Below are positions 24,179 to 49,332 of a stretch of DNA of 64,000 nt, piece after piece. The notes below the pieces were generated by a model, which worked only from the letters and a program-made list of their open reading frames with translations, had not been told where the DNA came from and ran no database searches. Source of the DNA: Natribacillus halophilus (GTDB taxonomy: Bacteria > Bacillota > Bacilli > Bacillales > Marinococcaceae); contig NZ_FNEN01000010.1 of the NCBI RefSeq assembly GCF_900100185.1, positions 1-64,000 on the forward strand, written 5' to 3'. The translations under genes and the position numbers were made by a program. The stretch's first letter is position 1; each line of letters starts with the position of its first letter.

Positions 24179-24193
24179 TTTATTTAAAGAAGG

Positions 24194-25604: not shown

Positions 25605-25619
25605 TCCTGCACCTCTTTT

Positions 25620-25928: not shown

Positions 25929-25959
25929 GCTTAATCTCCTCTCAAAAGAGATATAAAAA

Positions 25960-26208: not shown

Positions 26209-26232
26209 ACAAGAGACAGGGGGTGAGCAGAT

Positions 26233-29374: not shown

Positions 29375-29612
29375 TCATTGTATACTGGTGAAACCAAAAG
29401 AAGTAGATTAGTTGATCAGTGTCAATAAAGATGTACCGCAAATGAGATCAGATTGTGGAATAAGGCGATGGTGTAAAATAGGGATTTATAATTTGATGAT
29501 AAGTTAAGCGGTAATGTTATGGAACAAAGCGCCTTGAAGCTTCTTAGCAGTACCAGCAATTTGAGTTAGATTCATTTATGTTATAAGACTTATAAGGTAA
29601 GGAGGTCAGCTA
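29375..29612. other. Intergenic region without a recognised gene
   Basis: 238 AT-rich bases between the exporter 3 permease and the epimerase-like gene. Apart from the AAGGAGG ribosome site at about 29600 I see no clear terminator, ORF or repeat. Confidence 0.6.
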
Positions 29613-30620: not shown

Positions 30621-30747
30621 TAGAAAGCCTTTAATTGAATAACGACAGGAGAAGATTTTATTAAGTATGTAAGTTTAGTTTAGTAAGGGTAGATGAAACA
30701 TTTGAAGAAGAAGTTATTTTAAATGTAAGAAATAAGGGTGTTCAGTA

Positions 30748-31599
30748 ATGAATAATCATTGTCATGATATTAAACACCATTCACTTGAACGACGTGGTGC
30801 AAAAATTCACTATTGGTTGACTAAGCATCATAGTACAGCGTCCACGGTAATTTTAACTCATGGTGCTTCACTTGATCATCGTATGTTTGATACACAGGTG
30901 AAGGTTTTACACGATGCCGGATATCGAGTATTAACATGGGATGTTCGCGGGCATGGGTTATCGAAACCTCTAGGAGAGGAATTTACTGTACAGATCGTTG
31001 TGGAAGACTTAGAGGAAATCATTCATAAACATGAGTTAGATGAGATTATTCTCGTCGGGCATTCTTTTGGTGGTTATGTTTCGCAGATGCTGACATTTCT
31101 TCGGGCAGGAAAGGTAAGGGCGATGGCTGTCATTGGATGTATGGATATTATGGAAGTTCCCTCTTTTGGCATGCGTATAGCCTACCGGAACATGTCGCGT
31201 ATTTTTCGCATGATACCGGAAAGTATCTTACGGAAAAGGTTTGCTGAAGGGATGGGAATAACAGAAGCTGTACAAAACTACGCACTGAACACAAACAAAC
31301 AGTTAACGCGTGATGAATTTATTGAAGTTATGGATGTCGGTGTTCGTGCTATATATGAAGATCCTCTTTTTGGGAAGGAGTACTTCATTCAGAAGCCATT
31401 TTTGTTAACTCATGGTGAGAAAGATAGTGCGGAAAGAGGAACTTTTGTCAAAAAGGCTCCAGACTGGGCAAAGCGTGAACTGTATTGCCAGTATAAAGTG
31501 ATTCCGAACGCAGGGCATAATGCGAATCAAGACAACCCAGATTATTTTAATGGTGTCTTGCTTAAATTCATTGAAAATTTAAATCACAATCAAAAGTAG
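30748..31599 (+). CDS. Alpha/beta hydrolase
   Basis: 283 aa. Oxyanion segment LTHGASLDHRMFD, nucleophile elbow GHSFGG (about residue 113, Ser nucleophile), and the C-terminal catalytic His in PNAGHNANQDNP. Typical esterase/lactonase-like fold with a cap region; substrate unknown. It lies 23 bases before the PEP-synthase-like gene, so they are likely co-transcribed. Confidence 0.9.
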   Translation: MNNHCHDIKHHSLERRGAKIHYWLTKHHSTASTVILTHGASLDHRMFDTQVKVLHDAGYRVLTWDVRGHGLSKPLGEEFTVQIVVEDLEEIIHKHELDEIILVGHSFGGYVSQMLTFLRAGKVRAMAVIGCMDIMEVPSFGMRIAYRNMSRIFRMIPESILRKRFAEGMGITEAVQNYALNTNKQLTRDEFIEVMDVGVRAIYEDPLFGKEYFIQKPFLLTHGEKDSAERGTFVKKAPDWAKRELYCQYKVIPNAGHNANQDNPDYFNGVLLKFIENLNHNQK

Positions 31600-31622
31600 G
31601 GTTAGACAAAGGAGATTTTTTT

Positions 31623-34289: not shown

Positions 34290-34345
34290 TTGTAGCTTTG
34301 AAATAAAGTTTGAGCAATAATACCTCGCAAACCCGTATATTACCG

Positions 34346-34402
34346 TAAACAGAAAGAATCCATTTGGAAAAAAGATTTATCAAAATGGATTCTTTCTTTG
34401 TG
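34346..34402 (+). terminator. Intrinsic terminator after the Rph-like gene
   Basis: AGAAAGAATCCATTT pairs with AAATGGATTCTTTCT around a 17-base loop, followed by TTG; long stem. Confidence 0.75.
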
Positions 34403-34454
34403 CTGTAGTGTTCAATTTTTATAAAAAAGTTTGATCACTTTCTGATGATGATAT

Positions 34455-34713
34455 TCAGCAAAAGCTTCGATTCTTGAATAGGATAACTCGTATTAGCTGG
34501 TTTTGCTGGGGATCACCTTTTAAGTAATTCATCGCAACATTTCTGGTTTGTTCATCTGGATCGTCATATAATAGTTGTTCGGTGAACTCCTATATATCTT
34601 CTAGCCTTCTTCTTTCATGATAAAATTTTAAGGTATCAGGATTGACCGAAAAGTTCGGGTAAGTATTCAGATAAACACATAAAAATACATTGAAATAAGA
34701 TATTTTTGCACGT
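34455..34713 (-). pseudogene. Small decayed ORF with an internal stop
   Basis: On the minus strand a protein-like frame runs NTYPNFSVNPDTLKFYHERR, RLEDI, in-frame TAG, EFTEQLLYDDPDEQTRNVAM, NYLKGDPQQN and so on to a TGA at 34455. No start codon with a ribosome site is visible. Family unknown. The rest of 34403-34951 holds two copies of AATGAAACATAAG (about 34770 and 34830) and nothing else I can name. Confidence 0.5.
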
Positions 34714-34951
34714 CCCCCCGAAATAGTGGAATAAGTCTGGATTCAGATGGATCCTTTAATTGGATCTTAATGAAACATAAGAGCATTTATGTTTATTTAC
34801 ATCTTACAGATTAGTGTGGTAGCCATAATGAAACATAAGTTATCCTGTTTGGTATTTAACCAAATAAACATAATTTATTTTCTTCTTACTCCCCTTTATC
34901 GTTCCCGTTCCTGTTAATACGATGTAAGCGACATTCCTGATATTCCTGATT

Positions 34952-35728
34952 CTAATGCTGGTCTGCAAAAAGCCACCAATATAATGTACTGAGAAAGCCT
35001 AGCAAACTTGTAATGCCGATGATGATTAAACTGCTCCAACTGATGATGGTTTCTCCGGTTAAACCACTGTAGAGTGCCGGTACCGCCCATGGAAAATATT
35101 CACCGTGCCCTACAGCCGTAAGAATTTGAGAAAAAATAAGGGTAATAATGACAAAGCCTACCGGAGCTAAATACCCACGACTATAACTTGCAAAGAAAGC
35201 AACAGGCGTACTTAGAACAATCGTTAACATGGTAACGATTAGTATGACATACAGATTCTGCATCACGATGGCTGAAGACCATTGTGGAAGCCCTACGATC
35301 CACCCAATAAAAAAACCGAGAGCTACGATATATGCACTTAATACTATGTTTGTCATAAATGATGCTAAAAATTTTGATGTAACAATCACTGCTCTTGAAT
35401 AAGGAAGAGTCAGTAGATCTTTTACAGTGTTATCCACGTATTCCCTTCCAAATATCCAACTTGTAACAAAACCAAAAACGAAAATACCGCCTACTCCAAT
35501 CATTTGGGCATGTAAATCTAAATAGGACTGCCAATTAGCCTCTCCTGCAACTTGTGCTTGAGCTCCGACTAATCCAGCACTTTCCGCAAGTGCTGGATCT
35601 TTTAATACGAACATAAAAAAGCCAGCCATTAGTGGAGCAATGCTAAAAGCTGCTGCGATTATCCAAATGACTTTGGACTTGATGATTTTAAGTCCTTCCG
35701 TGTGCAAGGTAGCGAGAAAATATTTCAT
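34952..35728 (-). CDS. ABC-2 type permease (exporter 4)
   Basis: 258 aa, about six membrane helices, with the loop WIFGREYVDNTVKDLLTLPYSR that is typical of bacitracin/lantibiotic-type permeases (BcrB/LanE-like). Start overlaps the ATPase stop (ATGA type). Last gene of a TetR-ATPase-permease operon on the minus strand. Confidence 0.9.
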   Translation of the reverse strand: MKYFLATLHTEGLKIIKSKVIWIIAAAFSIAPLMAGFFMFVLKDPALAESAGLVGAQAQVAGEANWQSYLDLHAQMIGVGGIFVFGFVTSWIFGREYVDNTVKDLLTLPYSRAVIVTSKFLASFMTNIVLSAYIVALGFFIGWIVGLPQWSSAIVMQNLYVILIVTMLTIVLSTPVAFFASYSRGYLAPVGFVIITLIFSQILTAVGHGEYFPWAVPALYSGLTGETIISWSSLIIIGITSLLGFLSTLYWWLFADQH

Positions 35729-36651
35729 TGCAATGTTTCACCTCCTCTTTCGATGATGTTTAGAAAATGAGATTCTAAGTTTTCCTCTTTTACAGTTAAT
35801 TTTGTTGGGGGAAACCCTTTGTAAACAAGCAATCGGGATATCTTATCGGGATCTTGAATTGCCCTTCTATCGGTGGTTTCAATTAATCCTTTGTTATTTA
35901 TTTTTGAGATGTACCCAGCCGTTGTTAGTTGAGAAATAGCTGACTGATTATTACGAGTATCAATGACCAGCTGTTGATTGAGAAGGTCACTCAATTTAAT
36001 GGATTCAATTTCTTGTATTAATCGCCCATTATGAATAATGCCAATTTTCGTTGCTATTTTAGCTACTTCACTGAGCAGATGACTGCTCATTAAAATGGTA
36101 ACGCCTCTATTAAACGCTAAATCTTGAAGTAATTTTCTAATTTCTACAATTCCTGAAGGGTCTAAGCCATTCATTGGCTCATCTAAAATTAAGATTTCAG
36201 GTGAATGAAGAAGAGCCTTTGCAATTCCTAACCGTTGAGCATTCCCTAATGAAAGAGTCCCTGCCTTCTTTTGGGCATATCGTGTTAAATGAAGCTGTTC
36301 CATTACTTTTGGCACGATATCGGGGTCTGAAATCAATCTGATACGCCGAAAAATTGTTAAATTTTCTAGAACAGTAAGCTCAGGATAACAAGGGGGAGTT
36401 TCAACGATGTGTCCTACGCTTCTCCAAATACGATGATTAGTGGAAGTTATTTTTTTCCCTTTTATATAGCAAGTGCCTTCTGTTGGTTTGATCATGCCAA
36501 GTAACATTCTAATCGTTGTCGTTTTACCAGACCCATTTAATCCGATAAATCCATATATTTCTCCTTCACAAATGTTTAACGAAACATCTTTAACAGCCTG
36601 AAAACCTTTGTAGTTCTTTGATATACGGTTTGATTTAATGACTGTTCGCAA
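35725..36651 (-). CDS. BcrA-like ABC transporter ATP-binding protein (exporter 4)
   Basis: 308 aa from TTG 36651 (LRTVIKSNRISKNYKGFQAV), preceded by GAGGAGGGGGAG. Walker A GLNGSGKTTTI, signature LSLGNAQRLGIAKAL, Walker B ILILDEPMNGLDP, as in bacitracin and lantibiotic exporters. The start lies next to the stop of the TetR gene. Confidence 0.92.
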   Translation of the reverse strand: MRTVIKSNRISKNYKGFQAVKDVSLNICEGEIYGFIGLNGSGKTTTIRMLLGMIKPTEGTCYIKGKKITSTNHRIWRSVGHIVETPPCYPELTVLENLTIFRRIRLISDPDIVPKVMEQLHLTRYAQKKAGTLSLGNAQRLGIAKALLHSPEILILDEPMNGLDPSGIVEIRKLLQDLAFNRGVTILMSSHLLSEVAKIATKIGIIHNGRLIQEIESIKLSDLLNQQLVIDTRNNQSAISQLTTAGYISKINNKGLIETTDRRAIQDPDKISRLLVYKGFPPTKLTVKEENLESHFLNIIERGGETLQ

Positions 36652-36652
36652 T

Positions 36653-37264
36653 TTACTCCCCCTCCTCTTTGATAAGACCATCGACAATCAGATCAATAAA
36701 CAGTTCAATTGTTTCCGTATAAACTTCTACACCAATTTCTTTTTTATGAAGTGTTAATAAAAATAAAGAACGAAGCATAGCCGCAATGATCTCGGGGTTT
36801 GCTTCAAGAAGTACTCCTTCCTTTTGCCATTTTTCGATCAAAGGGAATAATGCAGCAGAATCATTATTATAATGTTCCACGAGTTTTTCAGGCGGTAACT
36901 TTCTAAGCAATGCTTCCATATTATTTTCAAAATACAACTGACGAATCAGTGGATTTGTTTCGATTATATCGATTGTCTGAAGGAGTAATTTTTTGATTTC
37001 TTGCTTAGGTTGATTATCCTTCTGGATATCTATACTAAGGAATTGTTTCTTTATTTGCTCCTCTTCTTTTTCAAGGATCTCGAAGTACAGCTCTTCCTTT
37101 GAATTGTAAAATTTATAAAATGTTCCTGGAGCAATACCAACATTTTTAGTGATTTCATTAATGCTGGTTTTTTGAAGTCCAAATTTACTAAAAAGAACCT
37201 TTCCTTGTTCTATAAGTGAATTAGTAATAACGTGTTTTTCATAACCTTTAAAACCTTTCGGCAT
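36653..37264 (-). CDS. TetR/AcrR family regulator (exporter 4)
   Basis: 203 aa. Helix-turn-helix KFGLQKTSINEITKNVGIAP continued by GTFYKFYNSKEELYFEIL. First gene of the operon with exporter 4. Operator candidate directly upstream at 37290-37316. Confidence 0.92.
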   Translation of the reverse strand: MPKGFKGYEKHVITNSLIEQGKVLFSKFGLQKTSINEITKNVGIAPGTFYKFYNSKEELYFEILEKEEEQIKKQFLSIDIQKDNQPKQEIKKLLLQTIDIIETNPLIRQLYFENNMEALLRKLPPEKLVEHYNNDSAALFPLIEKWQKEGVLLEANPEIIAAMLRSLFLLTLHKKEIGVEVYTETIELFIDLIVDGLIKEEGE

Positions 37265-37289
37265 GTTCAGTCCTCCATTATAATAAATT

Positions 37290-37316
37290 TATGAATATAA
37301 AAATTATATATTCATA
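37290..37316. promoter_or_regulatory. Operator candidate of the exporter 4 operon
   Basis: TATGAATATA (37290-37299) and TATATTCATA (37307-37316) form a perfect inverted repeat with a 7-base spacer, 26 bases upstream of the TetR start. Confidence 0.6.
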
Positions 37317-37319
37317 AAT

Positions 37320-38011
37320 TATAATATTTTTTAGGATTAATTTCAATGGCTTTTTGCTTGTCGGATAAAGTTTTTCGATTACCCGAAGTTTATAAAGGTA
37401 TACCTTTAAGGCCAGGAAGACATGGAATAGCACTTGGGTACCGGTTGTAGGAGCAGGTGTAGGAATTATTGCTGGAATAATTTATATTTTTTATGCTTTT
37501 AGTGTAACGTTGAAGATGATTATTACTGATCAAGATGTGACATTATAACAATGATCTGCCGCAATCGTCGTAGCGCAATTGTCGAATAAATGTAGACAGT
37601 TTTAGCCTTACATTGTGTTCATATAAACAACGTGAGAGACTAATTTTTATTTTAGTCTTGATTTTACGAGGTGACAGGTAATACTATCCATTTGATAGTC
37701 GTAAACAAAAACCGTCATCCATATATGGACTTGTTCATACGTTGATACGATGATTGCAACTTAGAAGAAAGTTGTGAATGAAAGCATAAAATGGGGGGAC
37801 TGGGTGAACCAAACCTCTATCTCTGGTGGATGGCACTTTTCAATAGTACAACCATCCGGTTTGAGGTGTCATTCCCCGTTGTCCCCATTCATTGACCAAT
37901 TGATGAAATAAAAAGGGAAGACAATTTATAAAAACGGTGGACATGTTAAGCTGAACGTTAGAAAATAGTAAAGGAAGAAGTAACTTACGGAAAAAAAGAG
38001 GAGCATACCAA
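37320..38011. other. About 690-bp intergenic region, remnants only
   Basis: A short open frame at about 37443-37547 (PVVGAGVGIIAGIIYIFYAF...) reads like the C-terminal part of a membrane protein but has no start; a 33-codon frame lies near 37792. Neither is convincing. No terminator or RNA recognised. Confidence 0.5.
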
Positions 38012-38665
38012 ATGGGGAAGACGATGATGAAAAAAAAACGTAAACGCCGTGCACTGCTGATCAGCCTGGGATCCATTTCTGCGCTTCTCTTTCTTACGAT
38101 CGGAATTTTCATGATAGCTCATATCGTCAATGAGCAGCAAATGAATCGTTTTTTAGATGGCTGGTTATCCGGTTACAGCAATGATGAAATCCCGGCCGAA
38201 TACTTTCCGATATATCAAGACGCTGCCCAAGAGTATGAAATCCCCTGGCAAGTGCTAGCCGCCGTTCATCGTATTGAGACAAAATTTTCAACGATGGATC
38301 CGATGGTTTCGCCCGTCGGCGCGGAAGGGCACATGCAGTTCATGCCTTGTACCTGGCACGGCTGGAGTCACCCGAGTTGTGATGATGTCGGAGCAGGGGA
38401 TATTCCCGAGGACGAGCTCACCGATCCGGCCATGATTGATACGAACGGGGGATATGGTGTGGACGCGTCAGGGAGTGGCGACGCTGACCCCTGGGATGAA
38501 ATAGATGCCATTTTTTCCACGGCTAATTTTTTAGCTTCCAACGGCGCTGATGTCGGGGAACTGGAAAACGCCTTGTATGCCTATAACCGTTCTGAATTGT
38601 ACGTGGATGAAGTCATGACTTACTACGATATCTATCGGAACGAAGGTTATCAAGTGAAAAAATAA
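38012..38665 (+). CDS. Membrane-anchored lytic transglycosylase
   Basis: 217 aa. Basic start, one membrane helix (about residues 15-37), then an SLT-like domain: catalytic-Glu context VLAAVHRIETKFS, VSPVGAEGHMQFMPCTWHGW, and AIFSTANFLASNGADVGE with YAYNRSELYVDEVM. Related proteins stand in conjugation operons or act alone in wall turnover. ATG after GAGGAGCATACCAA. It is the second wall hydrolase of the element, far from the transfer module. Confidence 0.9.
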   Translation: MGKTMMKKKRKRRALLISLGSISALLFLTIGIFMIAHIVNEQQMNRFLDGWLSGYSNDEIPAEYFPIYQDAAQEYEIPWQVLAAVHRIETKFSTMDPMVSPVGAEGHMQFMPCTWHGWSHPSCDDVGAGDIPEDELTDPAMIDTNGGYGVDASGSGDADPWDEIDAIFSTANFLASNGADVGELENALYAYNRSELYVDEVMTYYDIYRNEGYQVKK

Positions 38666-38684
38666 TCATCAGGGGGAGTGCACA

Positions 38685-38825
38685 ATTTCGTCAAATGCCC
38701 ATTATAATCACGTATCTCCAGGAAAAATAGTTTCCAGGAATGAGGTCTATATTACGATTGCCACCCTCATTGGCATCACACTTGTCGTCCCTCTTGGGTT
38801 GGCTCGCTTGCTTTTTGGAGTATAG
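38685..38825 (+). CDS. 46-aa single-span membrane protein with an apparent ATT start
   Basis: CAGGGGGAG is followed after 6 bases by ATT, then an open frame SSNAHYNHVSPGKIVSRNEV and YITIATLIGITLVVPLGLARLLFGV. One clear membrane helix near the C-terminus. No ATG/GTG/TTG in frame is placed better. It follows the transglycosylase by 19 bases, likely the same transcript. Confidence 0.5.
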   Translation: MSSNAHYNHVSPGKIVSRNEVYITIATLIGITLVVPLGLARLLFGV

Positions 38826-39122
38826 CCACGCGCCAAAAACTTCTTTATGGTGTCTTTTCTACGATCCTTTCTGTTAGTATTTAGCTTCATACATTCATAC
38901 AGTAGTATGGAAGAAGATGCTTCCGTTGATGGCGGTGAAGAGGAGAGACGGAAGAAGAGCAGGGAACCGAAGATGAAGGCTTATAGATTAAAACTAAAAG
39001 ATGAAAGTAATGACGTATGAATAAAAAGAGCAACGCCCCCCCATGGCAGGCTTTTTTTGATTACCAGAGAGATTTTATTACAGGGTGGGGGATTCATCAT
39101 AATGTTGGGTATAAAAAGGCCT
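38826..39122. other. Intergenic region before ktrA, possible decayed small gene
   Basis: A frame from 38849 (MVSFLRSFLLVFSFIHS...) becomes acidic, then shifts frame (EEE then TEEEQGTEDEGL in the next frame); it looks like a frameshifted acidic lipoprotein or exported protein without a ribosome site. No c-di-AMP riboswitch features were seen. Confidence 0.35.
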
Positions 39123-39151
39123 TTGACAAAAGGAATGGTATTTGCTTTACT
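39123..39151 (+). promoter_or_regulatory. Candidate promoter of ktrAB
   Basis: TTGACA (39123-39128), 17-base spacer, TTTACT (39146-39151), about 90 bases before the ktrA start. Confidence 0.45.
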
Positions 39152-39240
39152 TAAAACGTTCCAAACTTTTTTATGCCAGTAAATGTCAGGGTTCTTCTTG
39201 CTCCATACAGCAGTACATATCTATTCAAGGAGGATTAGGA

Positions 39241-39917
39241 TGAGAAATCAATTTGTTGTCATTGGCCTTGGGAGATTTGGGCAGAGTGTAACGAAAACAC
39301 TGATTGATAATGAAAATGATGTGTTAGCGATTGATAAAGATGAGCAAATCGTTCAGGAGGTCGCACCGAAAGTCACGCATGCCGTTCAAGTCGATGCGAC
39401 GGATGAGTCCGCATTAGAACAATTAGGTTTACATAAATTTTCCCATGCTATTGTTGGGATCGGCGAAAATTTGCAGGCAAGCATTTTAACGACACTGATT
39501 CTAAAGGAATTAAATGTCGGTGAGGTAACGGCAAAAGCGAAAGATGATTACCACGGTAAAGTGCTCAGTAAAATCGGTGCTGATAATATCGTTTTTCCGG
39601 AACGGGATATGGGAGATCGTCTGGGAAATTTGCTAAGTTCCAGTAATCTGATTGATTATCTGGAGCTTTCATCGGAATATAACATGGTTGAAATTCGGGC
39701 GCCGAAAGCAATGGATGGATGCACGCTTCAGAAATTAAATATCAACAAGACGTATGGGTGTATTGTGATGGCGATTAAGGATAAAGATGAAGAGGTGAAT
39801 ATCTCCCCTCACATTGAAGATCACATTCATCACGGCGATATTCTTACGATTATTGGAAAGCATAAGGATATCCGTCGCCTTCAAAAAGATTACCGGGAGA
39901 AAAGCAGGCTAAAGTAG
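39241..39917 (+). CDS. ktrA: KtrA/KtrC-type potassium uptake regulatory subunit
   Basis: 225 aa from ATG 39241 with AAGGAGGATTAGG. RCK domain: N-terminal VIGLGRFGQSV nucleotide-binding motif (6-16), acidic turn IDKDE, then an RCK-C domain (about 140-218). Forms the cytosolic ring that gates KtrB with ATP/ADP (and c-di-AMP in relatives). Ten bases before ktrB. Potassium uptake is central in salt and osmotic stress. Confidence 0.9.
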
Positions 39918-39927
39918 GTGCGTACGT

Positions 39928-41268
39928 ATGATTTCGCCTAAAAAAACCATTCATTTCAATCCACCGCAATGGATTATTTTCGGTTTTATTATCTTGATTA
40001 TCATAGGGACAATTTTGCTTGTTCTCCCGCAAGCTTCAACAGATGGCGAAAGTGTCGGTTTTTTAGATGCCTTATTCATGGCTGTTTCAGCGGTGTGTGT
40101 CACTGGCCTTGCTGTATTGGAATCTGGTGCAGACTTTTCGAGATTTGGGCAAATAGTGATGATTATTCTCGTTCAGCTAGGCGGTCTTGGTTTCATGATT
40201 TTCGGTGTCTCGGTTGCGGTTTTGGTAGGCAAGGTAATGGGGTTGAAGTACCGTCTACTTCTTCAGTCGACCACAAATACGTTTTCGGCACGGGGGCTGA
40301 TTCGGATAGCCATGATCATGCTGGGCATGGCTTTGCTCCTGGAAGCCATTGTCACACTGATTCTCACGATTCACTGGAGTAGTGAACAACCATGGACAGA
40401 GGCGGCGTATTCTGCCTTCTTTCATTCAGTCATGGCCTTTAATAATGCAGGATTCTCGCTTTATGCCAACAGTATGGAAGATTATATCGGGGACCCCGTT
40501 GTCAATCTTAGCTTGTCCGTGCTTTTTATTGTTGGCGGCCTTGGTTTTATGGTGCTGGTTGACTTATACCGGCAACGATCATTACGAAAACTTTCCTTAC
40601 ATTCTAAACTTGCGCTTGTGACATCCGGCGGACTTTTGGTCGCAGGGTTCCTTTTCCTTTTCATCGTTGAACTTTTTAACCCGGCAACTGAAGGATTAAC
40701 CATCTCCGAGCGATTATTAGCAACTTATTTTCAAAGTGTTACGCCAAGGAGTGGAGGTTTCAACACGTTTGATATTGGGAATATGCTCGTCGCCTCCCAA
40801 TTTTTCATTATCGTGCTTATGTTTATTGGTGCTTCGACCGGTGGCACTGGCGGGGGCATTAAAACAAATACATTTGCCATTCTTGTGCTTGCAACGATCA
40901 ATACGTTCAGGAGTGGCCATCAAGTCCACGCCTTTCATCGAAAAATTGCCTTGGAAACGGTCATGCGGGCGCTGGCGGTTGTGGTGAGTTCGTTAGCTTG
41001 GATCGTGGGAACGACATTACTATTGTCGATCACTGAAGGCATTCATGATATAAATTTTCTCACGGTATTATTCGAATCGGTTTCGGCGTTCAGTACTACG
41101 GGGCTTTCAATGGGATTAACAGAAGAACTGTCTCCGGCAGGTAAAATCATTACAATGATTACCATGTTCGTAGGGCGACTAGGGCCATTGACGCTGGCTT
41201 ACGCATTAACATATAAACAAAGCCCAAGTAAAATCAATTATCCTGAAGATAAAGTGCTTATTGGCTAA
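39928..41268 (+). CDS. ktrB: KtrB/TrkH-type potassium channel subunit
   Basis: 446 aa, about 8-10 membrane helices, with the four selectivity-filter repeats of the Ktr/Trk family (AVCVTGLAVLE, FNNAGFSLYANSM, TPRSGGFNTFD, FSTTGLSMGL). Pairs with the KtrA-type gene upstream. Na+-dependent K+ uptake is the expected activity. Confidence 0.92.
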   Translation: MISPKKTIHFNPPQWIIFGFIILIIIGTILLVLPQASTDGESVGFLDALFMAVSAVCVTGLAVLESGADFSRFGQIVMIILVQLGGLGFMIFGVSVAVLVGKVMGLKYRLLLQSTTNTFSARGLIRIAMIMLGMALLLEAIVTLILTIHWSSEQPWTEAAYSAFFHSVMAFNNAGFSLYANSMEDYIGDPVVNLSLSVLFIVGGLGFMVLVDLYRQRSLRKLSLHSKLALVTSGGLLVAGFLFLFIVELFNPATEGLTISERLLATYFQSVTPRSGGFNTFDIGNMLVASQFFIIVLMFIGASTGGTGGGIKTNTFAILVLATINTFRSGHQVHAFHRKIALETVMRALAVVVSSLAWIVGTTLLLSITEGIHDINFLTVLFESVSAFSTTGLSMGLTEELSPAGKIITMITMFVGRLGPLTLAYALTYKQSPSKINYPEDKVLIG

Positions 41269-41416
41269 AAAGGGACTGATAAAAAGTCAAACATTTTTTA
41301 AATAATTGGGTTGACATTATGTGGTTTCTGTATTAGTCTACTGAATATACAACAAAGAATTGAACTTGAATTAAGGATATTGATTAAAAAATGAATACGT
41401 GTGTGTGTTAACTGGT

Positions 41417-41450
41417 GGAGCCTGCTCATTTGCGGGCTCCTTTTGTCTTT
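41417..41450 (+). terminator. Intrinsic terminator
   Basis: GGAGCC (41417-41422) pairs with GGCTCC (41435-41440), followed by TTTTGTC. Confidence 0.65.
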
Positions 41451-41503
41451 TTTGAACATAAGAGCTAGGGCATTGGATGAGTATTTAATGAGAGGGGTTC
41501 TGG

Positions 41504-41956
41504 ATGGTTAATCAACCGTTGATATCGCAAGTAAGCGCTATCCTTATTGAGCATGCACGTGAACAAGGGGTATCCGAATTGCAATTACAACGTGCTATTC
41601 GGGATGAAGACGTTGATTTTCTAAATAAGGTAAGTGGTGAGCATTTTAAATATGATGAGTTGTTCGCTCATGCATATAGGTATGGTGAGGATCTGGAAAG
41701 AGCGTTATTGCAAGGATACCAAATGAATTTTAATACGCTAGAAGGTCTGCAAATATGGCTCATGCAGAAATTTGGCTTTGAAGAAGGCGTTTCCTACCAA
41801 ATCGAAAAGGGGGAGTTCAAACATATAGTAGTAAAAAACGATATTTTACAAACATTAGAAAGTAGACTTGCCACCAATTGGACAGTAGTTAAAAACGATG
41901 AAGATGAAGAGCAAAAAGAACATGACGTATCATTGCAATTAAATACTTGGTTTTGA
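41504..41956 (+). CDS. Hypothetical protein (150 aa), first of a small cassette
   Basis: ATG after GAGAGGGGTTCTGG. Soluble, helical N-terminal half (LISQVSAILIEHAREQGVSE) and an acidic charged end (KNDEDEEQKEHDV). Contains FNTLEGLQIWLMQKFGFEEG. No family recognised. It overlaps the longest frame of the next gene, so the two are one unit. Prophage-like or toxin-antitoxin-like cassette is possible but not shown. Confidence 0.7.
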   Translation: MVNQPLISQVSAILIEHAREQGVSELQLQRAIRDEDVDFLNKVSGEHFKYDELFAHAYRYGEDLERALLQGYQMNFNTLEGLQIWLMQKFGFEEGVSYQIEKGEFKHIVVKNDILQTLESRLATNWTVVKNDEDEEQKEHDVSLQLNTWF

Positions 41957-41976
41957 TGAAGGAGAACAGCCAGAGG

Positions 41977-42216
41977 ATGAAGTACTATGAATTTGTTTCC
42001 CCATTTTATGCATTGATTAAAGCACAAAACGAACGAAAAGCAAGAGCTATATACAAAAAACAAGTCTGGGAAGGAGGGGGCGATCAATGGCGGGAGCGAT
42101 CACGAGATTATGCCATAATGAAATTTGCAATGGCTCACGATAGCAGAAACACAGAAGTTAGATTAATGCTTACGGAATTTATGGATGATGAAAATGACGT
42201 TTTGTTATCCGATTAA
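41977..42216 (+). CDS. Hypothetical protein (79 aa), second of the cassette
   Basis: ATG 41977 (MKYYEFVSPFYALIKAQNER) with AAGGAGAA upstream; in-frame ATGs at 41947/41956 are alternatives. The N-terminus resembles small phage-type proteins (YYEF-PYYALI-A). Middle ARAIYKKQVWEGG and acidic C-terminus FMDDENDVLLSD. Function unknown. Confidence 0.65.
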   Translation: MKYYEFVSPFYALIKAQNERKARAIYKKQVWEGGGDQWRERSRDYAIMKFAMAHDSRNTEVRLMLTEFMDDENDVLLSD

Positions 42217-42285
42217 AATTATGGATGGTAGCATTCGTGTGGTTTCCCAGCATTTTTCGGTGGTAAGTTTTCGGAGGGGATCTTA

Positions 42286-42399
42286 ATTAGTGGGAAAAAG
42301 GTAGTATTATGGTCAATGTTAATATGGGTAGTTGTTTTTCCAATTAGAATTATACTGATCTTACTGCTTGTTAATAATCTACTCAATAATCCATTGTGA
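42286..42399 (+). CDS. 37-aa hydrophobic peptide with an apparent ATT start
   Basis: GGAGGGG is followed after 6 bases by ATT and the open frame SGKKVVLWSMLIWVVVFPIR then IILILLLVNNLLNNPL. One strong membrane helix. It is the second ORF in this element with a good ribosome site and ATT. No homologue known to me. Confidence 0.35.
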   Translation: MSGKKVVLWSMLIWVVVFPIRIILILLLVNNLLNNPL

Positions 42400-42583
42400 T
42401 CATTATTTCATTATTATAGTATTTATTATAAAATTAAGGATGGTAAAAATGATGTTTTTGTTAATCGATCAAAATTGCTGAAAAGAATGATCTGATTCAA
42501 AATGAAACTGTCTTTATGCAATGCAACCCTACAAAGGTGATCAGCCGATGAATTATAATATCGGCCTCGTTATTTGGTGATTA
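42400..42583. other. Intergenic region
   Basis: AT-rich; nothing recognised apart from weak hairpins. Confidence 0.4.
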
Positions 42584-43606
42584 TCATATTTCACTTCCAT
42601 CTTTATTCTTCGCTAATTTTTCTCGATCTTTCGCTCCTGGCGGTTGTTCAAGCCATTGATGTTTTATCATGATATCAGCTCCACTTTTGGCAAGCTTGGC
42701 ATTTTCTAACGATAATCGTTCATAATCAGTTGCAATATCGCTTCGTTGACTAGCGGCTGCAGCTGTCGCATAGTTTCCTACACCTGAGGAAATGAGCAGA
42801 GACATATTAAACATCATTAATTTGTCGGAAAACGTTGGGGTAGTAGAGTCACTGACACCTACATCTGGTATGCTTGAGACCTCAATTTCATCCTCTAAAA
42901 GCTTGTAAGTAAAAATTTTTGTGTGTTTCTTTGAGACGTCTTTTCCTCGTAGCATAAAATCTTGAACCTCTTTGCGTGGGGAGGTTTGAGCAAAGGCGAT
43001 ACACAATTTCATTCCTATAGAATTCGTGAGGACATTCATATATAAATGGGAAATTTCAACGGCATTTAAGGGACGTTGATCGCTAAAAGGGTTGAAACCA
43101 CTCATATATGCTTTACTATCTATATAATCGCTGCTTTTAGGGACTTCAATAAAAGGGTGCCTACCAGCGATACCCTTTTCAAGCTCAATTTTGCTTGCTT
43201 GATTATAAAGCTTATTTGCTTCCGTTAAGGCTTGTGAAAAATAGGTTCGTATGTCATCCCTGTCACTCAACGAAACAAAGCCACTGTAGGAGAGCATTCC
43301 TACTTTCCCCATGTGCCTCATAAAGGATATACAAAGCGTATCTGTAAACAACCATGGCGCGTTCATGTCGACGTCTTGTTCACCAAAACCATTTGGGAAT
43401 GCGTATGATTCGTCCTCAAAAATGGTGCGTAACTGCTTTAGGTGATCAGATGTAAGATCATAGGCGTACTGCACAATGGGCTTAATGTCTGCGTCTGAAA
43501 TGTGTTTGAGCATAAAACGTAAGATACAGGCAGACATACTATCATTCATGTAAGCTGTCCAAAGGGAACCAATTTCTGCAGATGTTAAGTGAACATTTTT
43601 TGGCAT
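42584..43606 (-). CDS. DUF3231 family protein
   Basis: 340 aa. Two related helical (ferritin-like, spore-coat-like) halves: LTSAEIGSLWTAYMNDSMSA in the first and LNAVEISHLYMNVLTNSIGM in the second, each about 160 residues. The family is widespread in Bacillaceae and linked with sporulation; function not established. GGAGG ribosome site upstream on its strand. Confidence 0.87.
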   Translation of the reverse strand: MPKNVHLTSAEIGSLWTAYMNDSMSACILRFMLKHISDADIKPIVQYAYDLTSDHLKQLRTIFEDESYAFPNGFGEQDVDMNAPWLFTDTLCISFMRHMGKVGMLSYSGFVSLSDRDDIRTYFSQALTEANKLYNQASKIELEKGIAGRHPFIEVPKSSDYIDSKAYMSGFNPFSDQRPLNAVEISHLYMNVLTNSIGMKLCIAFAQTSPRKEVQDFMLRGKDVSKKHTKIFTYKLLEDEIEVSSIPDVGVSDSTTPTFSDKLMMFNMSLLISSGVGNYATAAAASQRSDIATDYERLSLENAKLAKSGADIMIKHQWLEQPPGAKDREKLAKNKDGSEI

Positions 43607-43690
43607 TTTTGGGACCTCCTCCTAAATGGATATTGAGATATGTTATGTTAGATATTGAATTGACACGAAGGTTAAAGGCGCTATCCAGTA

Positions 43691-43945
43691 GTGACACAGT
43701 ATAAGTATCACTCATGTCAATCGCATTATGCTTTCCATATATTTACTTCACTAACACCGGTTGTCGCTTTTATGCAAACGGAGCGCCTTAATGGAATAAA
43801 TAAGTGCCTATTATTGGGGTCAACATCTTTGGGTCAAAGGCTACTTGTGTACAACAGTTGGAACGATCAATGATTAAACGATCCGTCAGTATATTGAAGG
43901 TCAGCAAGTTGAAGGCGACGGCATGTTTAACATCGATGAATAACC
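43691..43945 (+). pseudogene. IS200/IS605 Y1-transposase (tnpA) remnant
   Basis: The N-terminal piece reads YKYHSCQSHYAFHIFTS, and the C-terminal piece YYWGQHLWVKGYLCTTVGT, ND, stop, TIRQYIEGQ, which matches the IS200 TnpA end (LWGxHxWxxGYFVxTVG...IRxYIExQ). The HUH and Tyr catalytic centre between them is deleted or shifted. Hairpin-rich DNA 43945-44100 may be the IS end. Confidence 0.6.
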
Positions 43946-44141
43946 AGAGAACCGAGTTTCAGTCGGAAAACTTCAGTTGGCTTTCAGCCAAAGGTCTTTT
44001 AGCTGGCTTTAGTTGAATAGTGGGCTTTCAGCCGTGAAGGGAACCTACCGGCTTAGGCCAGTAGTCGTTTAGCAAAGGAGGCTGTCTTAGGCTCTGAGAA
44101 TGACTAAAACAGCGTTTCATTTGTTCTTTTACTCCGGCTCA

Positions 44142-44261
44142 AGGTAAAGTCATTGCTGAAGGGACCAGCGGAGAACTGAAAGCTTCCGTCGGTTCAGGCA
44201 CCTTACACGTACGATTGCTTGAACCGGAAACCCGCCCGGAGGCAGACACAGATACTGGCTG
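44142..44261 (+). pseudogene. C-terminal fragment of a DrrA-like ABC ATPase
   Basis: Open frame QGKVIAEGTSGELKASVGSG then TLHVRLLEPETRPEADTDTG and stop. This is the regulatory C-terminal part of drug-exporter ATPases; the nucleotide-binding domain is gone. Confidence 0.7.
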
Positions 44262-44319
44262 AGAAACTTGCCACTGCGATTCACCTTTCACCGATCCGTC
44301 CGCCTTTTCAGCCCGAATA

Positions 44320-45315
44320 TCGGATACCGCATGGTATTAGGTATTGCTGCTATTGCAGGGCAGGTTCTTGGTGGTTTTATCGTAGAGGCTGATTTGGGAG
44401 GTCTAGGTTGGCGCATGATTTTCCTAATCAATGTACCCATAGGCATTTTTCCCATTATCATGGCACGGTTTATCCCTGAATCTCACGCTCCTGAACGGCC
44501 GTTGCTTGATTGGGGTGGCGTGGTGATTGTTAGTCTGGGGCTTATATTATTCCTGTATCCGCTTATTGAATCGCCAAACCATGGATGGACCATCTTATCA
44601 CTTGCTGCTTCTGCATTGGTGTTACTAGGATTTTGGCGGCATCAGGAAAGACGACGAATGGCGAATCAGCAGCCGCTGGTAGACACAATGCTCTTACGTC
44701 AATCCCGGTTTAATATGGATGGCAGTCTGGTATTGCTGATTTATTCTACGTCATCTGTATTTTTCTTAACCTATGCGCTTTTAGTACAAACGGGTCGGTT
44801 TGAGCCCGCTTGCCGCAGGAAGTCTATTTGTACCTTGCAGCATCGCATTTACTGCATCTTCCATAGCAGCCGCCCGTCTTGTAGAACGTTTTGGAACCAT
44901 TGTTATCTTTTGGGGAGCCGTATTCTATACGTTCTCATTTGCTGTATTAATCGGGCAAGTATGGATCGCAGGTGGTGAATTGGTTGCTATTCACCTTATC
45001 CCGGCACTTATTTTTGTAGGAATTGGGCAAGGGTTAGTTATGACACCACTCTTGAATCTTGTATTGGGCTTTGTAGAAGAGAGCAAGGCAGGGATGGCCT
45101 CAGGAGTTATTGCTACTTTACAACAGGTAGGTCCAGCTATTGGTGTTGCAGCAGTAGGCATACTCTTTGGTACCGCAGTTGCTGATGCTGCCGGAGGAGA
45201 CGCCCAGAGCAGTCTATATGTTTCTGCTTTTGGCAGTGCGATGATTTACAATCTTATCGCTTCTTTGATTTCAGCGTTTCTGATTTGGAAAATGGCAAAA
45301 ATGAAAGCAAACTGA
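44320..45315 (+). pseudogene. MFS drug-efflux pump (DHA2/EmrB-like), truncated and frameshifted
   Basis: The first frame gives VLGGFIVEADLGGLGWRMIF, LINVPIGIFPI, up to FLTYALLVQTG; the second resumes at LSPLAAGSLFVPCSIAFTAS and runs to the end. A one-base indel lies at about 44790-44800 and the first four helices are missing. The motif GWRMIFLINVPIG is typical of 14-helix drug pumps. Confidence 0.85.
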
Positions 45316-45482
45316 TGGTTACCCAGTCATTTGGTCTTCAGTACATGAAAATTGTCATTTTTAAGCTGGCTGGCCGAGTTATTCGTAGTCATTGCACAAA
45401 TTTTTATCAGGTATGCTCTCTACTTAAATAAAGGTATAAAAATAATCGTGGATGTATTAGCTAACAAATAAATCATACCTAT

Positions 45483-45523
45483 ACCCAACTGTCTATCCAT
45501 TTTCAGTTGGGTTCCTTTTTCTC
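45483..45523 (+). terminator. Intrinsic terminator
   Basis: ACCCAACTG pairs with CAGTTGGGT, followed by TCCTTTTT. Confidence 0.75.
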
Positions 45524-45631
45524 AAAAAAATTTCATCAAATCTTTGGCAATTTCTAAAAACATTTGTTGAAGGATATGAAAGGGGAAATCATCGCCCACC
45601 TTTGCAGCCATTGCGAAGGGAGATGACATGC

Positions 45632-46063
45632 ATGATCAAACCAAGTCGTACCGAATGGCAAATACGCTGTGCGTTTAACGCCTTTTGTAAACGTGTGTTA
45701 AAGAATGAAGCAACCAACATTTACCACGAGAGACGGCGACAACAAGCCAAGGAAATGACTTTTTCCGGTTTAACACCCCAAGAAGAAAATCAGCTCTATA
45801 CCTTAGACAAACATGAAGAAGACGAACGAGATTTTCAAGTGGCCGGGAAAAGAATGACGTCAAGGTTAGTGGCTCAAGCCATGCACACGTTGCCAAAAGA
45901 AAAGCGTATCGCTGTCCTCTTATCCTATTTCTTTCATCAATCAGATATAGAGATCAGTCAACTGCTCGATGTTCCACGCAGTACCGTGCAGTATAGGCGG
46001 ACAAGCGCATTAGAACGGTTAAAACGATTTTTGGAGGAACATGCAGATGAATGGGTTGATTAA
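45632..46063 (+). CDS. Sigma-70-like ICE regulator (Tn916 Orf7-like)
   Basis: 143 aa from ATG 45632 with GAAGGGAG upstream. The C-terminal region-4 helix-turn-helix is clear: LPKEKRIAVLLSYFFHQSDI, EISQLLDVPRSTVQYRRTSA, LERLKRFL. Such proteins pair with a small HTH gene (next entry) and control transfer or recombinase genes in ICE of this group. Confidence 0.85.
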   Translation: MIKPSRTEWQIRCAFNAFCKRVLKNEATNIYHERRRQQAKEMTFSGLTPQEENQLYTLDKHEEDERDFQVAGKRMTSRLVAQAMHTLPKEKRIAVLLSYFFHQSDIEISQLLDVPRSTVQYRRTSALERLKRFLEEHADEWVD

Positions 46064-46295
46064 TACCGAGAACAATGAGCGTGGTTTGTTGCCGTTTCCG
46101 GTTATTTTAGCTGCAAATAAGGGTGAAGCCGAAGCCATGAAAGTCGTTATCCAGCATTATGAAAGCTATATGGCCAGCCTGTCCATGCGAAAACTTCAGG
46201 ATGAGCAAGGAAACACCTATTGGGGCATGGATAAAGATACACATGATCGCTTACGATCCAAACTTATGCAGTCTGTTTTGGCTTTTGAGATTTAA
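46047..46295 (+). CDS. Small helix-turn-helix protein (Tn916 Orf8-like)
   Basis: 82 aa from ATG 46047, with GGAGGA at a good distance inside the previous gene; overlaps it by 17 bases. LPFPVILAANKGEAEAMKVV and IQHYESYMASLS match the HTH_16-type proteins that follow the sigma-like gene in Tn916-related elements. Confidence 0.83.
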   Translation: MNGLINTENNERGLLPFPVILAANKGEAEAMKVVIQHYESYMASLSMRKLQDEQGNTYWGMDKDTHDRLRSKLMQSVLAFEI

Positions 46296-46489
46296 GCAGA
46301 GAATGATTAGTATTCCCCTTTCGTTATAATCATTTGATCCTTGACAAACGAGCATGGAAGATAACGCCATGCCTTATAATTAGAAAAATCAGATACGTTC
46401 TGCTGATGTTGAGCTACATGATTCTTGCGCCATGACTTTCTTTGGAAACGAGCGATTATCAAGAAATCTAATGTAATCGTGGTGGATTA

Positions 46490-46705
46490 CTGGCGATGAC
46501 CCATCAGTATGGATAATGATACTCCCCTATAGTCATAGTTTGAGCGTTAGAAGCGTCGCAAAGCAATGAGTAGGGCTGGAAGAAATACTTGCAGGGGTGA
46601 AATTCCCGTGGAGCTTTACCAACAGCCGTCTGATTTTTAAAATAGGTAGTGTGGTTGATGAAATATTGGAGTTGATCGTAAATCAGCAAGGTTTTGTACG
46701 GTAAA
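46490..46705 (+). ncRNA. Candidate structured RNA, copy A
   Basis: About 200 bases homologous to copy B at 47143-47350. Shared blocks: CGATGAYCCAT, GGATAATGATAC, GGGTGAAATTCCC-like, and the GGTAAATTTT-AGGAG end. Stems: AGTAT / ATACT around GGATAATG, GGCTG / CAGCC, and GGGG-TGAAAT-TCCC. After its AGGAGA there is no SHOCT-like ORF, so this copy seems to be the leader of a deleted recombinase module. Confidence 0.5.
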
Positions 46706-47142
46706 TTTTTAGGAGATCCTGGCTGAAATGGGATTTCCTATAGGGTGGGAATCGTATTTCCGTTGAGTGAAAAACATTATTTCGCAAAAAGCTTAAAACA
46801 AATGGCGTTTGTACGGTAAAATAGAAATAACGGAAATTAACACTTCATCCTCGACAAAGGTCTACGAGTGTATAGATTTTTTTCAGTGTCTATTGTCAAT
46901 GGAACAGTTTGAATACTGATATTACCAAATTCAAACAGCTCAAGTTTTTTGTGAAATGATACCAATTATTGTCAGGAAATGTCACGGTGGGACTTGTTCT
47001 TCTACCCTTTGGTCTTTGAAAATTAAATAGATCCATTCCGGTACGCTCCCCGCATGAGAAGCCAGTTTGCAGATGCGCCAAGACCATCATGTGAAATGAG
47101 AGCAATGTCATCTATAGCATAAATTAAGTGGTGGTTCCACTT

Positions 47143-47350
47143 AGGGCGATGATCCATGTGGAGGGATAATGATACTTCCGTTCAGCCACAGCTTTACCTT
47201 ATGATGGTGATTCACGCAATGGGGACGGCTCGCAGCGATCCTGGGAGAGGTGAAAATCCTATGGGCCAATCTTTAACCACTGGCCGCTGGAAGGGATATT
47301 GTTATAGTAAAACCTTCAAGTTAAAAATTTGCTTTGGTAAATTTTCAGGA
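47143..47350 (+). ncRNA. Candidate structured RNA, copy B (leader of the SHOCT-recombinase unit)
   Basis: Same conserved blocks as copy A, with compensatory changes in the stems: GGAG / CTTCC instead of AGTAT / ATACT, CGGCT / GGCCG instead of GGCTG / CAGCC, and GAGG-TGAAAA-TCCT instead of GGGG-TGAAAT-TCCC. It ends at the ribosome site AGGAGG of the 48-aa gene at 47358. I cannot assign it to an RNA family. Confidence 0.55.
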
Positions 47351-47357
47351 GGTAACT

Positions 47358-47504
47358 ATGGATAAAACATTATTGAAGTATAGTATGAAAATTGCCATGT
47401 TAAAACAGTTGCTCGCATTGTCCCTGATTACAGAAAAAGAATTTATTTTAGTAAAAAACCATTTAATGGAAAAATACGGAATAATATCAGAGGTGAATTT
47501 TTAA
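47358..47504 (+). CDS. SHOCT-like small protein (48 aa)
   Basis: ATG follows CAGGAGGTAACT. Sequence MDKTLLKYSMKIAMLKQLLA then LSLITEKEFILVKNHLMEKY and GIISEVNF. The L-x-LLxxGLITExEFxxVKxxLxxKYG pattern is that of SHOCT-like proteins placed before ICE serine recombinases. Probably an accessory or regulatory partner of recombination. 73 bases before the recombinase gene. Confidence 0.75.
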   Translation: MDKTLLKYSMKIAMLKQLLALSLITEKEFILVKNHLMEKYGIISEVNF

Positions 47505-47577
47505 TTCGCACAATGGTGAATCAACTCCAATCTTATTATACTTGTAAGTGAGAATAAGATGAAAGGAGTTTTTAAGC

Positions 47578-49332
47578 ATGGAAAATTACGAAGTTGAAGT
47601 CATAAAAGCCAATCGAAAATTAACTAATCGGACCAATTCCGATCTTTCCGACACTTTGAAAGTAGCTCCTTATGCGCGTGTAAGCACAGATACTGAAGAA
47701 CAGCTCAGCAGTTATCAATCCCAAGTACAGCATTACACAGACATGGTGGATCAACGTAGTGATTGGACATTAGTAGATATTTATGCTGATGAAGCAATTA
47801 CTGGAACACAAACGGTGAAACGAGAAGATTTTCAGCGGCTTATTAATGATTGTATAGATGGAAAGATTGATATGATCATAACGAAGTCGATATCAAGGTT
47901 TGCCCGAAATACATTGGATACTTTAAAGCATGTTCGTCAATTAAAAGAGAAAAATATTGCGGTTTTGTTTGAAGATGAGAACATTAATACAATGACAATG
48001 GATGGAGAACTTTTGCTCACCATTTTAAGTTCAGTCGCACAACAGGAAGTAGAAAATATTTCTGCCAATGTGAAAAAGGGACTGCAAATGAAAATGCAGC
48101 GAGGTACTATGGTTGGTTTTCAAAGCTGTCTTGGTTATGATTATGATCCACAAACCAAAGAGATTTGCATTAATAAAGCAGAAGCTCAAATAGTACGCTA
48201 CATTTTTAGACGTTATATTGAGGGAATAGGAACCGGAGTTATTACAAGGGAGCTTATGCAAGCTGGACTTAAAACCAAAAAAGGAAGTGAAATTTGGAGA
48301 GATTCGACTGTTCTTTTCATCCTAAAAAATGAAAAATATAAAGGAGATTTATTGCAAGGGAAATCATTTACGGTTGATCCCATATCTAAGAGAAGACTTG
48401 CAAATTTTGGTGAGGTCAACCAGTATTACGTTAAGAATCATCATGAACCAATTATAAGTAGAGAAGTGTTTGATAAGGCACAAGATTTTTTAAACAGAAG
48501 AAGCAAAGCGAAATTGAAAGGGAAAAGAAAACATGGAAAAACCGGTGGAAAGTATAGTAGGTTATATACATTTAGCAGCTTGTTGGAATGCGCACATTGT
48601 GGAAACATTTATAGTCGGCGTTCGTGGCATGCAGAGACTACACATAAGAAAACAGTGTGGGAATGCGTTACTAAAACTAAAAAAGGAAAGAAATATTGCC
48701 TTCATAGTAAAGCCGCAGGAGAAGCAGTTCTTGAGGAAGCTTTTGTGCAATCATATCGGAAGCTTTGTCGAAACCATAAGGAAGTATTGAATGAATTGCT
48801 TCATACAATGGAATCTTTGCTAATGGATAAAAAGCAGCAAAAAAGACTAGATAAACTCTCAAAAGAGATTAATCATATAGAACAAAAAAGTCGAAAGTTA
48901 CTTGATTTATTAATGGAAGAAGAGATCGATAAAATTTCTTATGATCATAAACGAAATGAACTGCAAACAACCGAAGCTCGATTACGTGAAGAAAAAGAAA
49001 AACTGGAACGATCAATTCAACAAACAAATTCCGTAGAAGCACGGATTAAGAAGTTTCAAGAAGTGCTGACGGAAAATGATATCTTACCTGAGTTTGACCG
49101 TCATGTATTTGAAAGCATCACAGAAAAAGTGATTATGGGTGATCCTACTAAACAAAAACCTAACCAAATCACATTTATATTTAAGACAGGTGAACGTAAA
49201 ATTATGGATGGAAAAAGACTTGCAGATGATCAAAAAAAGCCCGTAGAAAAAGAAAGGAGTGAGCCGCTTTCCCTTTCCTTTAACAACACAGGTAGAGAGC
49301 GTGACGCGGTTGGTGCGGAGGTAATGCCGTAA
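47578..49332 (+). CDS. Large serine recombinase (ICE integrase/excisionase)
   Basis: 584 aa. Catalytic resolvase domain at the N-terminus with YARVSTDTEEQLSSYQSQV (Ser about 39) and SISRFARNTLD; recombinase domain (GYDYDPQTKEICINKAEAQI); zinc ribbon LECAHCGNIYSRR with later Cys (WECVTKTKKGKKYC); long coiled coil (about 410-520); beta-rich end (ITEKVIMGD... ITFIFKTGE). ATG after AAAGGAG. The last 14 codons after FNNT lie beyond the att core, in host DNA. In the circular element the frame would instead run into 1603-1773. Confidence 0.94.
   Translation: MENYEVEVIKANRKLTNRTNSDLSDTLKVAPYARVSTDTEEQLSSYQSQVQHYTDMVDQRSDWTLVDIYADEAITGTQTVKREDFQRLINDCIDGKIDMIITKSISRFARNTLDTLKHVRQLKEKNIAVLFEDENINTMTMDGELLLTILSSVAQQEVENISANVKKGLQMKMQRGTMVGFQSCLGYDYDPQTKEICINKAEAQIVRYIFRRYIEGIGTGVITRELMQAGLKTKKGSEIWRDSTVLFILKNEKYKGDLLQGKSFTVDPISKRRLANFGEVNQYYVKNHHEPIISREVFDKAQDFLNRRSKAKLKGKRKHGKTGGKYSRLYTFSSLLECAHCGNIYSRRSWHAETTHKKTVWECVTKTKKGKKYCLHSKAAGEAVLEEAFVQSYRKLCRNHKEVLNELLHTMESLLMDKKQQKRLDKLSKEINHIEQKSRKLLDLLMEEEIDKISYDHKRNELQTTEARLREEKEKLERSIQQTNSVEARIKKFQEVLTENDILPEFDRHVFESITEKVIMGDPTKQKPNQITFIFKTGERKIMDGKRLADDQKKPVEKERSEPLSLSFNNTGRERDAVGAEVMP
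49283..49324 (+). pseudogene. Displaced 3' end of rlmD and attR core
   Basis: In the frame different from the recombinase, TTQVESVTRLVRR and stop TAA at 49322-49324 form an RlmD C-terminus. The core ACACA is at 49286-49290. This is the original tail of the host gene cut off by integration. Confidence 0.8.

What the first reader, a model, noticed from the sequence alone, without database searches (positions are those of the whole stretch)
46490..47350. Two diverged copies of a structured RNA upstream of the SHOCT-recombinase unit
Copies at 46490-46705 and 47143-47350 share GATGAYCCAT, GGATAATGATAC, a GTGAAA-loop hairpin and other blocks in the same order. The stems differ by compensatory changes: AGTAT/ATACT vs GGAG/CTTCC, GGCTG/CAGCC vs CGGCT/GGCCG, GGGG/TCCC vs GAGG/TCCT. 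Copy B runs to the ribosome site of the 48-aa gene; copy A has lost its downstream genes. An RNA that controls or guides recombinase expression is plausible. I cannot name the family.
Basis: partly seen in the sequence, partly recalled or inferred. Interest (0 to 1): 0.8.

Follow-up and report, generated by a model that had tools for sequence, protein, structure and literature searches.

The report
Tandem antiterminator RNAs of a mobile element
Two copies of a widespread RNA of unknown role (Rfam "pemK") sit at one end of a conjugative element, and the same RNA lies exactly where published Tn916 mutations abolish an RNA switch that makes RNA polymerase ignore stop signals, so its likely job is to turn on the transfer genes after the element excises.

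Summary
Both copies are strong members of Rfam RF02913, "pemK RNA" (64.0 and 67.1 bits, cutoff 34.8), an orphan family typed only "cis-reg". The window is a Tn916-family ICE of about 47.7 kb in the 3' end of rlmD. Both RNAs lie between its orf7/orf8-like genes and its SHOCT-recombinase genes. Tn916 carries the same RNA between orf8 and xis. There, Wirachman & Grossman (PMC11658703) mapped canT, a cis-acting processive antiterminator. Their inactivating S3 mutation (ATA to TGC, +283 after orf8) falls on the first three bases of the RNA's conserved AUAAUGAUAC, and their 162-bp deletion removes the whole Rfam match. That paper does not mention pemK or Rfam. Best reading: pemK RNA is the core of canT. 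Nascent RNA makes polymerase terminator-resistant, so after circularisation transcription crosses the attachment junction, passes the left-end terminators (here 1797-1823, 1845-1868) and enters the conjugation operon. 24 of 26 base pairs show double compensatory changes across 41 loci. The RNA shares its strand with the nearest relaxase in 40 of 42 loci, and twice heads a conjugation operon with no recombinase between. A guide or recombinase-specific role is unlikely. Not tested: antitermination activity of either window copy.

The parts
46473..46627 (+). RNA copy A (pemK/canT-type); P1 46473-46490, conserved block GATAATGATAC 46512-46522, Rfam core 46513-46611, T-loop-like hairpin 46595-46607, P5 short here
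   Evidence: Rfam RF02913 64.0 bits; covarying structure in relatives; P1 hairpin
47124..47285 (+). RNA copy B (pemK/canT-type); P1 47124-47144, conserved block 47165-47175, Rfam core 47166-47264, hairpin 47248-47260, P5 47264-47285
   Evidence: Rfam RF02913 67.1 bits
45629..46063 (+). sigma-70 region-4-like gene, counterpart of Tn916 orf7
   Evidence: Pfam Sigma70_r4_2 8.3e-9; same order upstream of the RNA in Tn916-type loci
46041..46295 (+). HTH_16 gene, counterpart of Tn916 orf8
   Evidence: Pfam HTH_16 5e-21
47358..47504 (+). 48-aa SHOCT-domain gene downstream of copy B
   Evidence: Pfam SHOCT_2 7.6e-6, cutoff met
47578..49332 (+). large serine recombinase (element integrase)
   Evidence: Resolvase, Recombinase, Zn_ribbon_recom
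1797..1823 (+). intrinsic terminator at the left end inside the element (T1-like insulator), 12-bp stem then TTTTT
   Evidence: position relative to the element boundary
1845..1868 (+). second intrinsic terminator at the left end, 8-bp stem then T-run
1887..16170 (+). conjugation operon entered after circularisation: ParB-like 1887, FtsK-like 3817, Rep_trans relaxase 5332, VirB4-type ATPase 9740, lysozyme/M23 14593
1598..49297 (.). limits of the integrated element (3' end of the rlmD-type gene to just inside the recombinase stop), within a few bases
   Evidence: identity to G021 jumps at ~1598 and ends at 49297

Best explanation
The two copies are canT-type processive antiterminator RNAs, and the Rfam pemK RNA is the conserved core of canT. 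Proposed working: (1) the element excises and circularises; (2) transcription starting upstream of orf7/orf8 copies RNA A, RNA B, SHOCT and recombinase, then crosses the joined attachment site; (3) each nascent RNA folds (5' hairpin P1, single-stranded AUAAUGAUAC, multibranched P2/P3/T-loop P4 closed by C-U-Y/R-U-G, 3' hairpin P5) and acts in cis on the polymerase that made it, making it terminator-resistant; (4) that polymerase ignores the left-end terminators (1797-1823, 1845-1868), which otherwise insulate the integrated element from host promoters, and transcribes the 14-kb conjugation operon. Shown by others for Tn916: steps 1-2 and cis, processive, orientation-specific antitermination. 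Shown here: identity of the RNA with the mutated site, its structure, the terminators and the geometry. Inferred: activity of the window copies, direct contact with RNA polymerase, and any additive effect of two copies.
For: Both copies pass RF02913. In loci carrying the Tn916 xis-int, the RF02913 match runs from +283 to +383 after the orf8 stop. The paper's S3 mutation (ATA to TGC at +283) hits exactly the first three bases, and its deletion +229..+390 removes the whole match. The mapping was checked: the minus-strand orf5 there has 83 codons, codon 30 GCA and Tyr65 at the S3 site, as the paper describes, and the old Tn5 insertion at codon 41 also lies inside the RNA. The first base of S3 is invariant in 41 of 41 aligned loci. 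Structure: 89.8% of cells paired against 42-48% when slid, 24 of 26 pairs with double changes, 0 of 500 shuffles. Strand: RNA and nearest relaxase agree in 40 of 42. Terminators stand at the left end of this element and of G021, G382 and G219. The RNA heads ParA-led conjugation operons without a recombinase in G491 and on a Cohnella plasmid. No attenuator-like terminator in or within 200 nt after the RNA in 49 loci.
Against: No activity was measured for either window copy. In the paper S3 had little effect in a 400-bp fragment, a 291-nt fragment holding the S3/deletion sequence was inactive, and some shorter fragments were active, so the minimal active part is unsettled. One relative (G271) shows no strong left-end terminator by my criteria. 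The strand agreement is not corrected for relatedness (several loci are Tn916 itself), and integrase and transfer modules tend to be codirectional anyway. A few loci place the RNA before other genes.
Confidence: 0.83

Rival explanations
1. A riboswitch-like leader that controls expression of the excisionase/recombinase just downstream by attenuation or ribosome-site masking.
For: 118 of 143 loci have a tyrosine or serine recombinase within 3.5 kb downstream; Rfam types the family as cis-regulatory; the T-loop-like hairpin also occurs in known riboswitches (own knowledge).
Against: Tn916 RNA mutants excise normally and lose conjugation-gene transcription instead. No terminator in or after the RNA in 49 loci. 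Distance to the first gene varies (median 83 nt) and the downstream gene type varies, including ParA operons.
Confidence: 0.08
2. A guide or scaffold RNA for the recombinase, in the manner of bridge RNAs.
For: Sits next to the recombinase gene; conserved single-stranded block.
Against: Found with unrelated tyrosine and serine recombinases and without any recombinase. Longest match to the attachment regions equals shuffled expectation. canT acts without other Tn916 genes.
Confidence: 0.01
3. An antiterminator whose activity is gated by a ligand or host factor (antitermination plus sensing).
For: Large conserved tertiary-looking core with a T-loop-like hairpin and invariant unpaired bases, more elaborate than needed for a simple tether.
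Against: The Tn916 element was active in B. subtilis and on heterologous terminators without added signals; no ligand clue in gene context.
Confidence: 0.2
4. Copy A is a decayed relic and only copy B works.
For: Copy A no longer leads a gene; its P5 is short; a close relative (L008) leads a SHOCT-recombinase pair.
Against: Copy A keeps every invariant base and the P1-P4 pairs, and scores higher than the working Tn916 RNA (64.0 against 55 bits). Tandem copies also occur in G253.
Confidence: 0.35

Closest known systems
Rfam RF02913 pemK RNA
   Same: Both copies exceed the gathering score over the full model; same AUAAUGAUAC block, P2-P4 and closing pair.
   Different: The functional element is longer than the Rfam model: a 5' hairpin P1 and a 3' hairpin P5 are conserved outside it. 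The family's stated role is only cis-regulatory.
Tn916 canT (conjugation-associated antiterminator, PMC11658703)
   Same: Same RNA at the same place (after orf7/orf8, before the recombination genes); the S3-mutated bases are conserved in both copies; left-end terminators present.
   Different: Here in tandem and ahead of a SHOCT-serine recombinase module instead of xis-int; activity untested.
EAR element of Bacillales eps operons; HK022 put RNA; pLS20 conAn1/conAn2
   Same: Processive antitermination of long operons (by literature).
   Different: No EAR (epsC) match at E up to 1. conAn needs a protein; put is a different, phage RNA.
IS110 bridge RNA
   Same: Structured RNA beside a recombinase gene.
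   Different: No IS110-type recombinase; no target complementarity; found without recombinases.

Membership tests
Rfam RF02913 pemK RNA | covariance-model score above the gathering cutoff (34.8) | tested here: met
   64.0 and 67.1 bits, full model
Rfam RF02913 pemK RNA | conserved covarying structure shared with other members | tested here: met
   26 pairs, 89.8% paired, 24 with double changes over 41 loci including both copies
canT-type processive antiterminator | homologous to the RNA mutated in Tn916 canT | tested here: met
   Tn916 canT contains an RF02913 match at +283..+383 after orf8; S3 and the 162-bp deletion hit it
canT-type processive antiterminator | codirectional with the conjugation operon that lies beyond the attachment junction and an insulating terminator | tested here: met
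   window geometry and terminators 1797-1868
canT-type processive antiterminator | read-through of distant and heterologous terminators in cis | not testable with these tools
   needs a reporter assay
Riboswitch with attenuator platform | terminator between aptamer and gene | tested here: not met
   0 of 49 loci
EAR/epsC antiterminator (Rfam) | match to the family model | tested here: not met
   no hit at E up to 1 in 46300-47600
Bridge/guide RNA of a recombinase | loops complementary to target or donor DNA | tested here: not met
   longest matches 6-8 nt, as in shuffles

The most novel reading that the evidence does not exclude
The whole orphan family RF02913 is one class of RNA-only processive antiterminators, spread across Bacillota on ICEs, plasmids and even before giant surface-protein operons, and copied in tandem in some elements; canT of Tn916 is its first experimentally tested member.
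Probability: 0.7. Interest if true: 0.8.

Novelty: new member of a known kind. Interest (0 to 1): 0.72.

Why it matters
pemK RNA has stood in Rfam without a known function. Matching it base for base to the canT mutations gives it one, and gives canT, whose authors had only single-sequence folds, a structure supported by covariation. It predicts that many Bacillota ICEs, including resistance-carrying Tn916 relatives, couple transfer-gene expression to excision through the same RNA, and it names the exact bases to mutate. I found no paper in the held library that makes the link; papers not held could.

Tried and rejected
Single-sequence folding: no excess stability, not informative. RNAalifold on the sequence alignment found only P2, so pairs were found by mutual information and then counted. 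Guide RNA: rejected. Attenuating riboswitch: no terminators. The weak AilA thermometer hit (25 of 81 bits) was ignored as chance. A pattern scan of viral contigs gave two hits, both confirmed as pemK RNA; one has the same length and match position as an Anaerosphaera genome contig that was also hit, so the family is not mainly phage-borne as far as seen. An extended covariance model was not built; the Rfam model already decided membership.

Full report
Observation. The region 46473-47285 holds two copies of one RNA. cmscan against Rfam 15 gives RF02913 (pemK RNA, type cis-reg) at 46513-46611 (64.0 bits) and 47166-47264 (67.1 bits), gathering score 34.8. No other copy exists in this genome. The copies share long blocks and align over most of their length, but each is closer to RNAs from other genomes than to the other copy: A is about 0.90 identical to L008 and 0.89 to L006, B about 0.79 to L004. 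So they look like two lineages brought together, rather than a recent duplication. Inference: a B-type RNA-SHOCT-recombinase module replaced the genes once led by copy A, as L008 (an A-type RNA directly before SHOCT and recombinase) suggests.

Element. The window carries a Tn916-family ICE. Its left limit is near 1598, at the 3' end of an rlmD-type gene, and its right limit near 49297, judged from a second genome (G021) that carries the same element in the same place. The left part has ParB, FtsK-like, Rep_trans relaxase, VirB4-type and lysozyme/M23 genes, all on the + strand. The right part has sigma-like and HTH_16 genes like Tn916 orf7 and orf8, then RNA A, RNA B, a 48-aa SHOCT gene and a large serine recombinase.

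Relatives. RF02913 occurs in 28 of 398 sampled genomes of the class, 26 of 398 of the phylum, and 20 of 82 in one class of the phylum; a pattern scan of named genomes hit more than 100 stretches before its limit. Of 143 oriented loci, 118 have a tyrosine or serine recombinase within 3.5 kb downstream; 28 have a SHOCT gene, and nine a PemK-type toxin gene, which presumably gave the family its name (PemK confirmed by Pfam). Two independent settings have no recombinase in between: in G491 the RNA heads a codirectional ParA-to-relaxase operon of about 14 kb, and on a Cohnella plasmid, with the identical segment in G140, it heads a ParA-ParB operon. The RNA is on the same strand as the nearest relaxase in 40 of 42 loci within 80 kb; this is not corrected for relatedness.

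Structure. On a sequence-only alignment of 41 loci the strongest covarying column pairs fall mostly in helices: a closing C-U-Y/R-U-G pair set, P2, P3, P4 (a 3-bp hairpin with a GUGAAAU loop) and P5. Counted as a structure, 89.8% of cells pair, against 42-48% when partners are slid; 24 of 26 pairs show changes on both sides; no shuffle of 500 reaches the observed values. A 5' hairpin P1, often with a GUGGU-like loop, stands about 20 nt before AUAAUGAUAC in 92% of loci (stem of 6 or more) against 27% in shuffles. P1 and P5 are outside the Rfam model. Rfam 15 itself added three covarying pairs to this family, and CaCoFold listed it as having more covariation than its published structure.

Function. 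Wirachman and Grossman (PMC11658703) showed that Tn916 has a terminator T1 at its left end that insulates it from host promoters. They also showed that a region between orf8 and xis, canT, lets transcription pass T1, T2, T3 and foreign terminators; it acts in cis, in one orientation, without other Tn916 genes, and its mutants excise normally but lose conjugation-gene expression. Their coordinates are relative to the orf8 stop: canT +126 to +577, the deletion +229 to +390, S3 (ATA to TGC) at +283. In loci carrying Tn916 xis and int, the RF02913 match spans +283 to +383, so S3 replaces its first three bases and the deletion removes all of it. The frame was checked: the minus-strand ORF over it has 83 codons with GCA at codon 30 and Tyr at codon 65, which S3 turns to Ala, matching the paper's account of orf5; the older Tn5 insertion at codon 41 also lies in the RNA. 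The paper contains neither pemK nor Rfam, and no paper found names both.

Prediction checked. If these RNAs work like canT, the element should carry an insulating terminator between its left end and its first transfer gene. It does, twice: 1797-1823 and 1845-1868. The sequence is the same in G021, and terminators stand at the matching place in G382 (170 bp after rlmD) and G219 (before the orf23-like gene); G271 shows none by the same criteria. No attenuator-like terminator lies in or within 200 nt after the RNA in 49 loci, as expected if it acts on distant terminators.

Limits. Activity of the window copies is inferred. Within canT the minimal active part is unsettled: S3 had little effect in a 400-bp fragment, and a 291-nt fragment holding the mutated region was inactive. 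Whether the RNA touches RNA polymerase directly, needs host factors or senses a signal is open. The bench tests listed would settle this.

Noticed in passing
window 6411-6472, + strand: Rfam RF01691 Bacillus-plasmid RNA (48.4 bits) just after the relaxase gene of the element.
   Followed up: no
window 59364-59692, + strand: cspA thermoregulator RNA RF01766 (89.5 bits), outside the element.
   Followed up: no
window 49332-49625: Start of a TauE/SafE gene directly after the recombinase; it matches only 66 of 237 profile positions, so it looks truncated near 49580.
   Followed up: no
window 16189-24406 versus G021: The same element in G021 carries about 16 kb more here, so the cargo differs between the two hosts.
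   Followed up: no
L118 (4178-4255, -) and L140 (6106-6184, +): In two Bacilli MAGs a pemK RNA directly precedes a baseplate/collar-like gene followed by a large protein gene (at least 955 aa in L118, apparently RHS-like by eye): a possible non-conjugative use of the antiterminator for very long genes.
   Followed up: partly
L030 (G253:C1:315970 and 317226, -): Another tandem pair of pemK RNAs, 1256 bp apart.
   Followed up: partly
L199 2052-2281, + strand: The Tn916 region also carries Rfam RF03532 (SQ2397, cis-regulator of an HTH factor, 229.8 bits) upstream of orf7.
   Followed up: no
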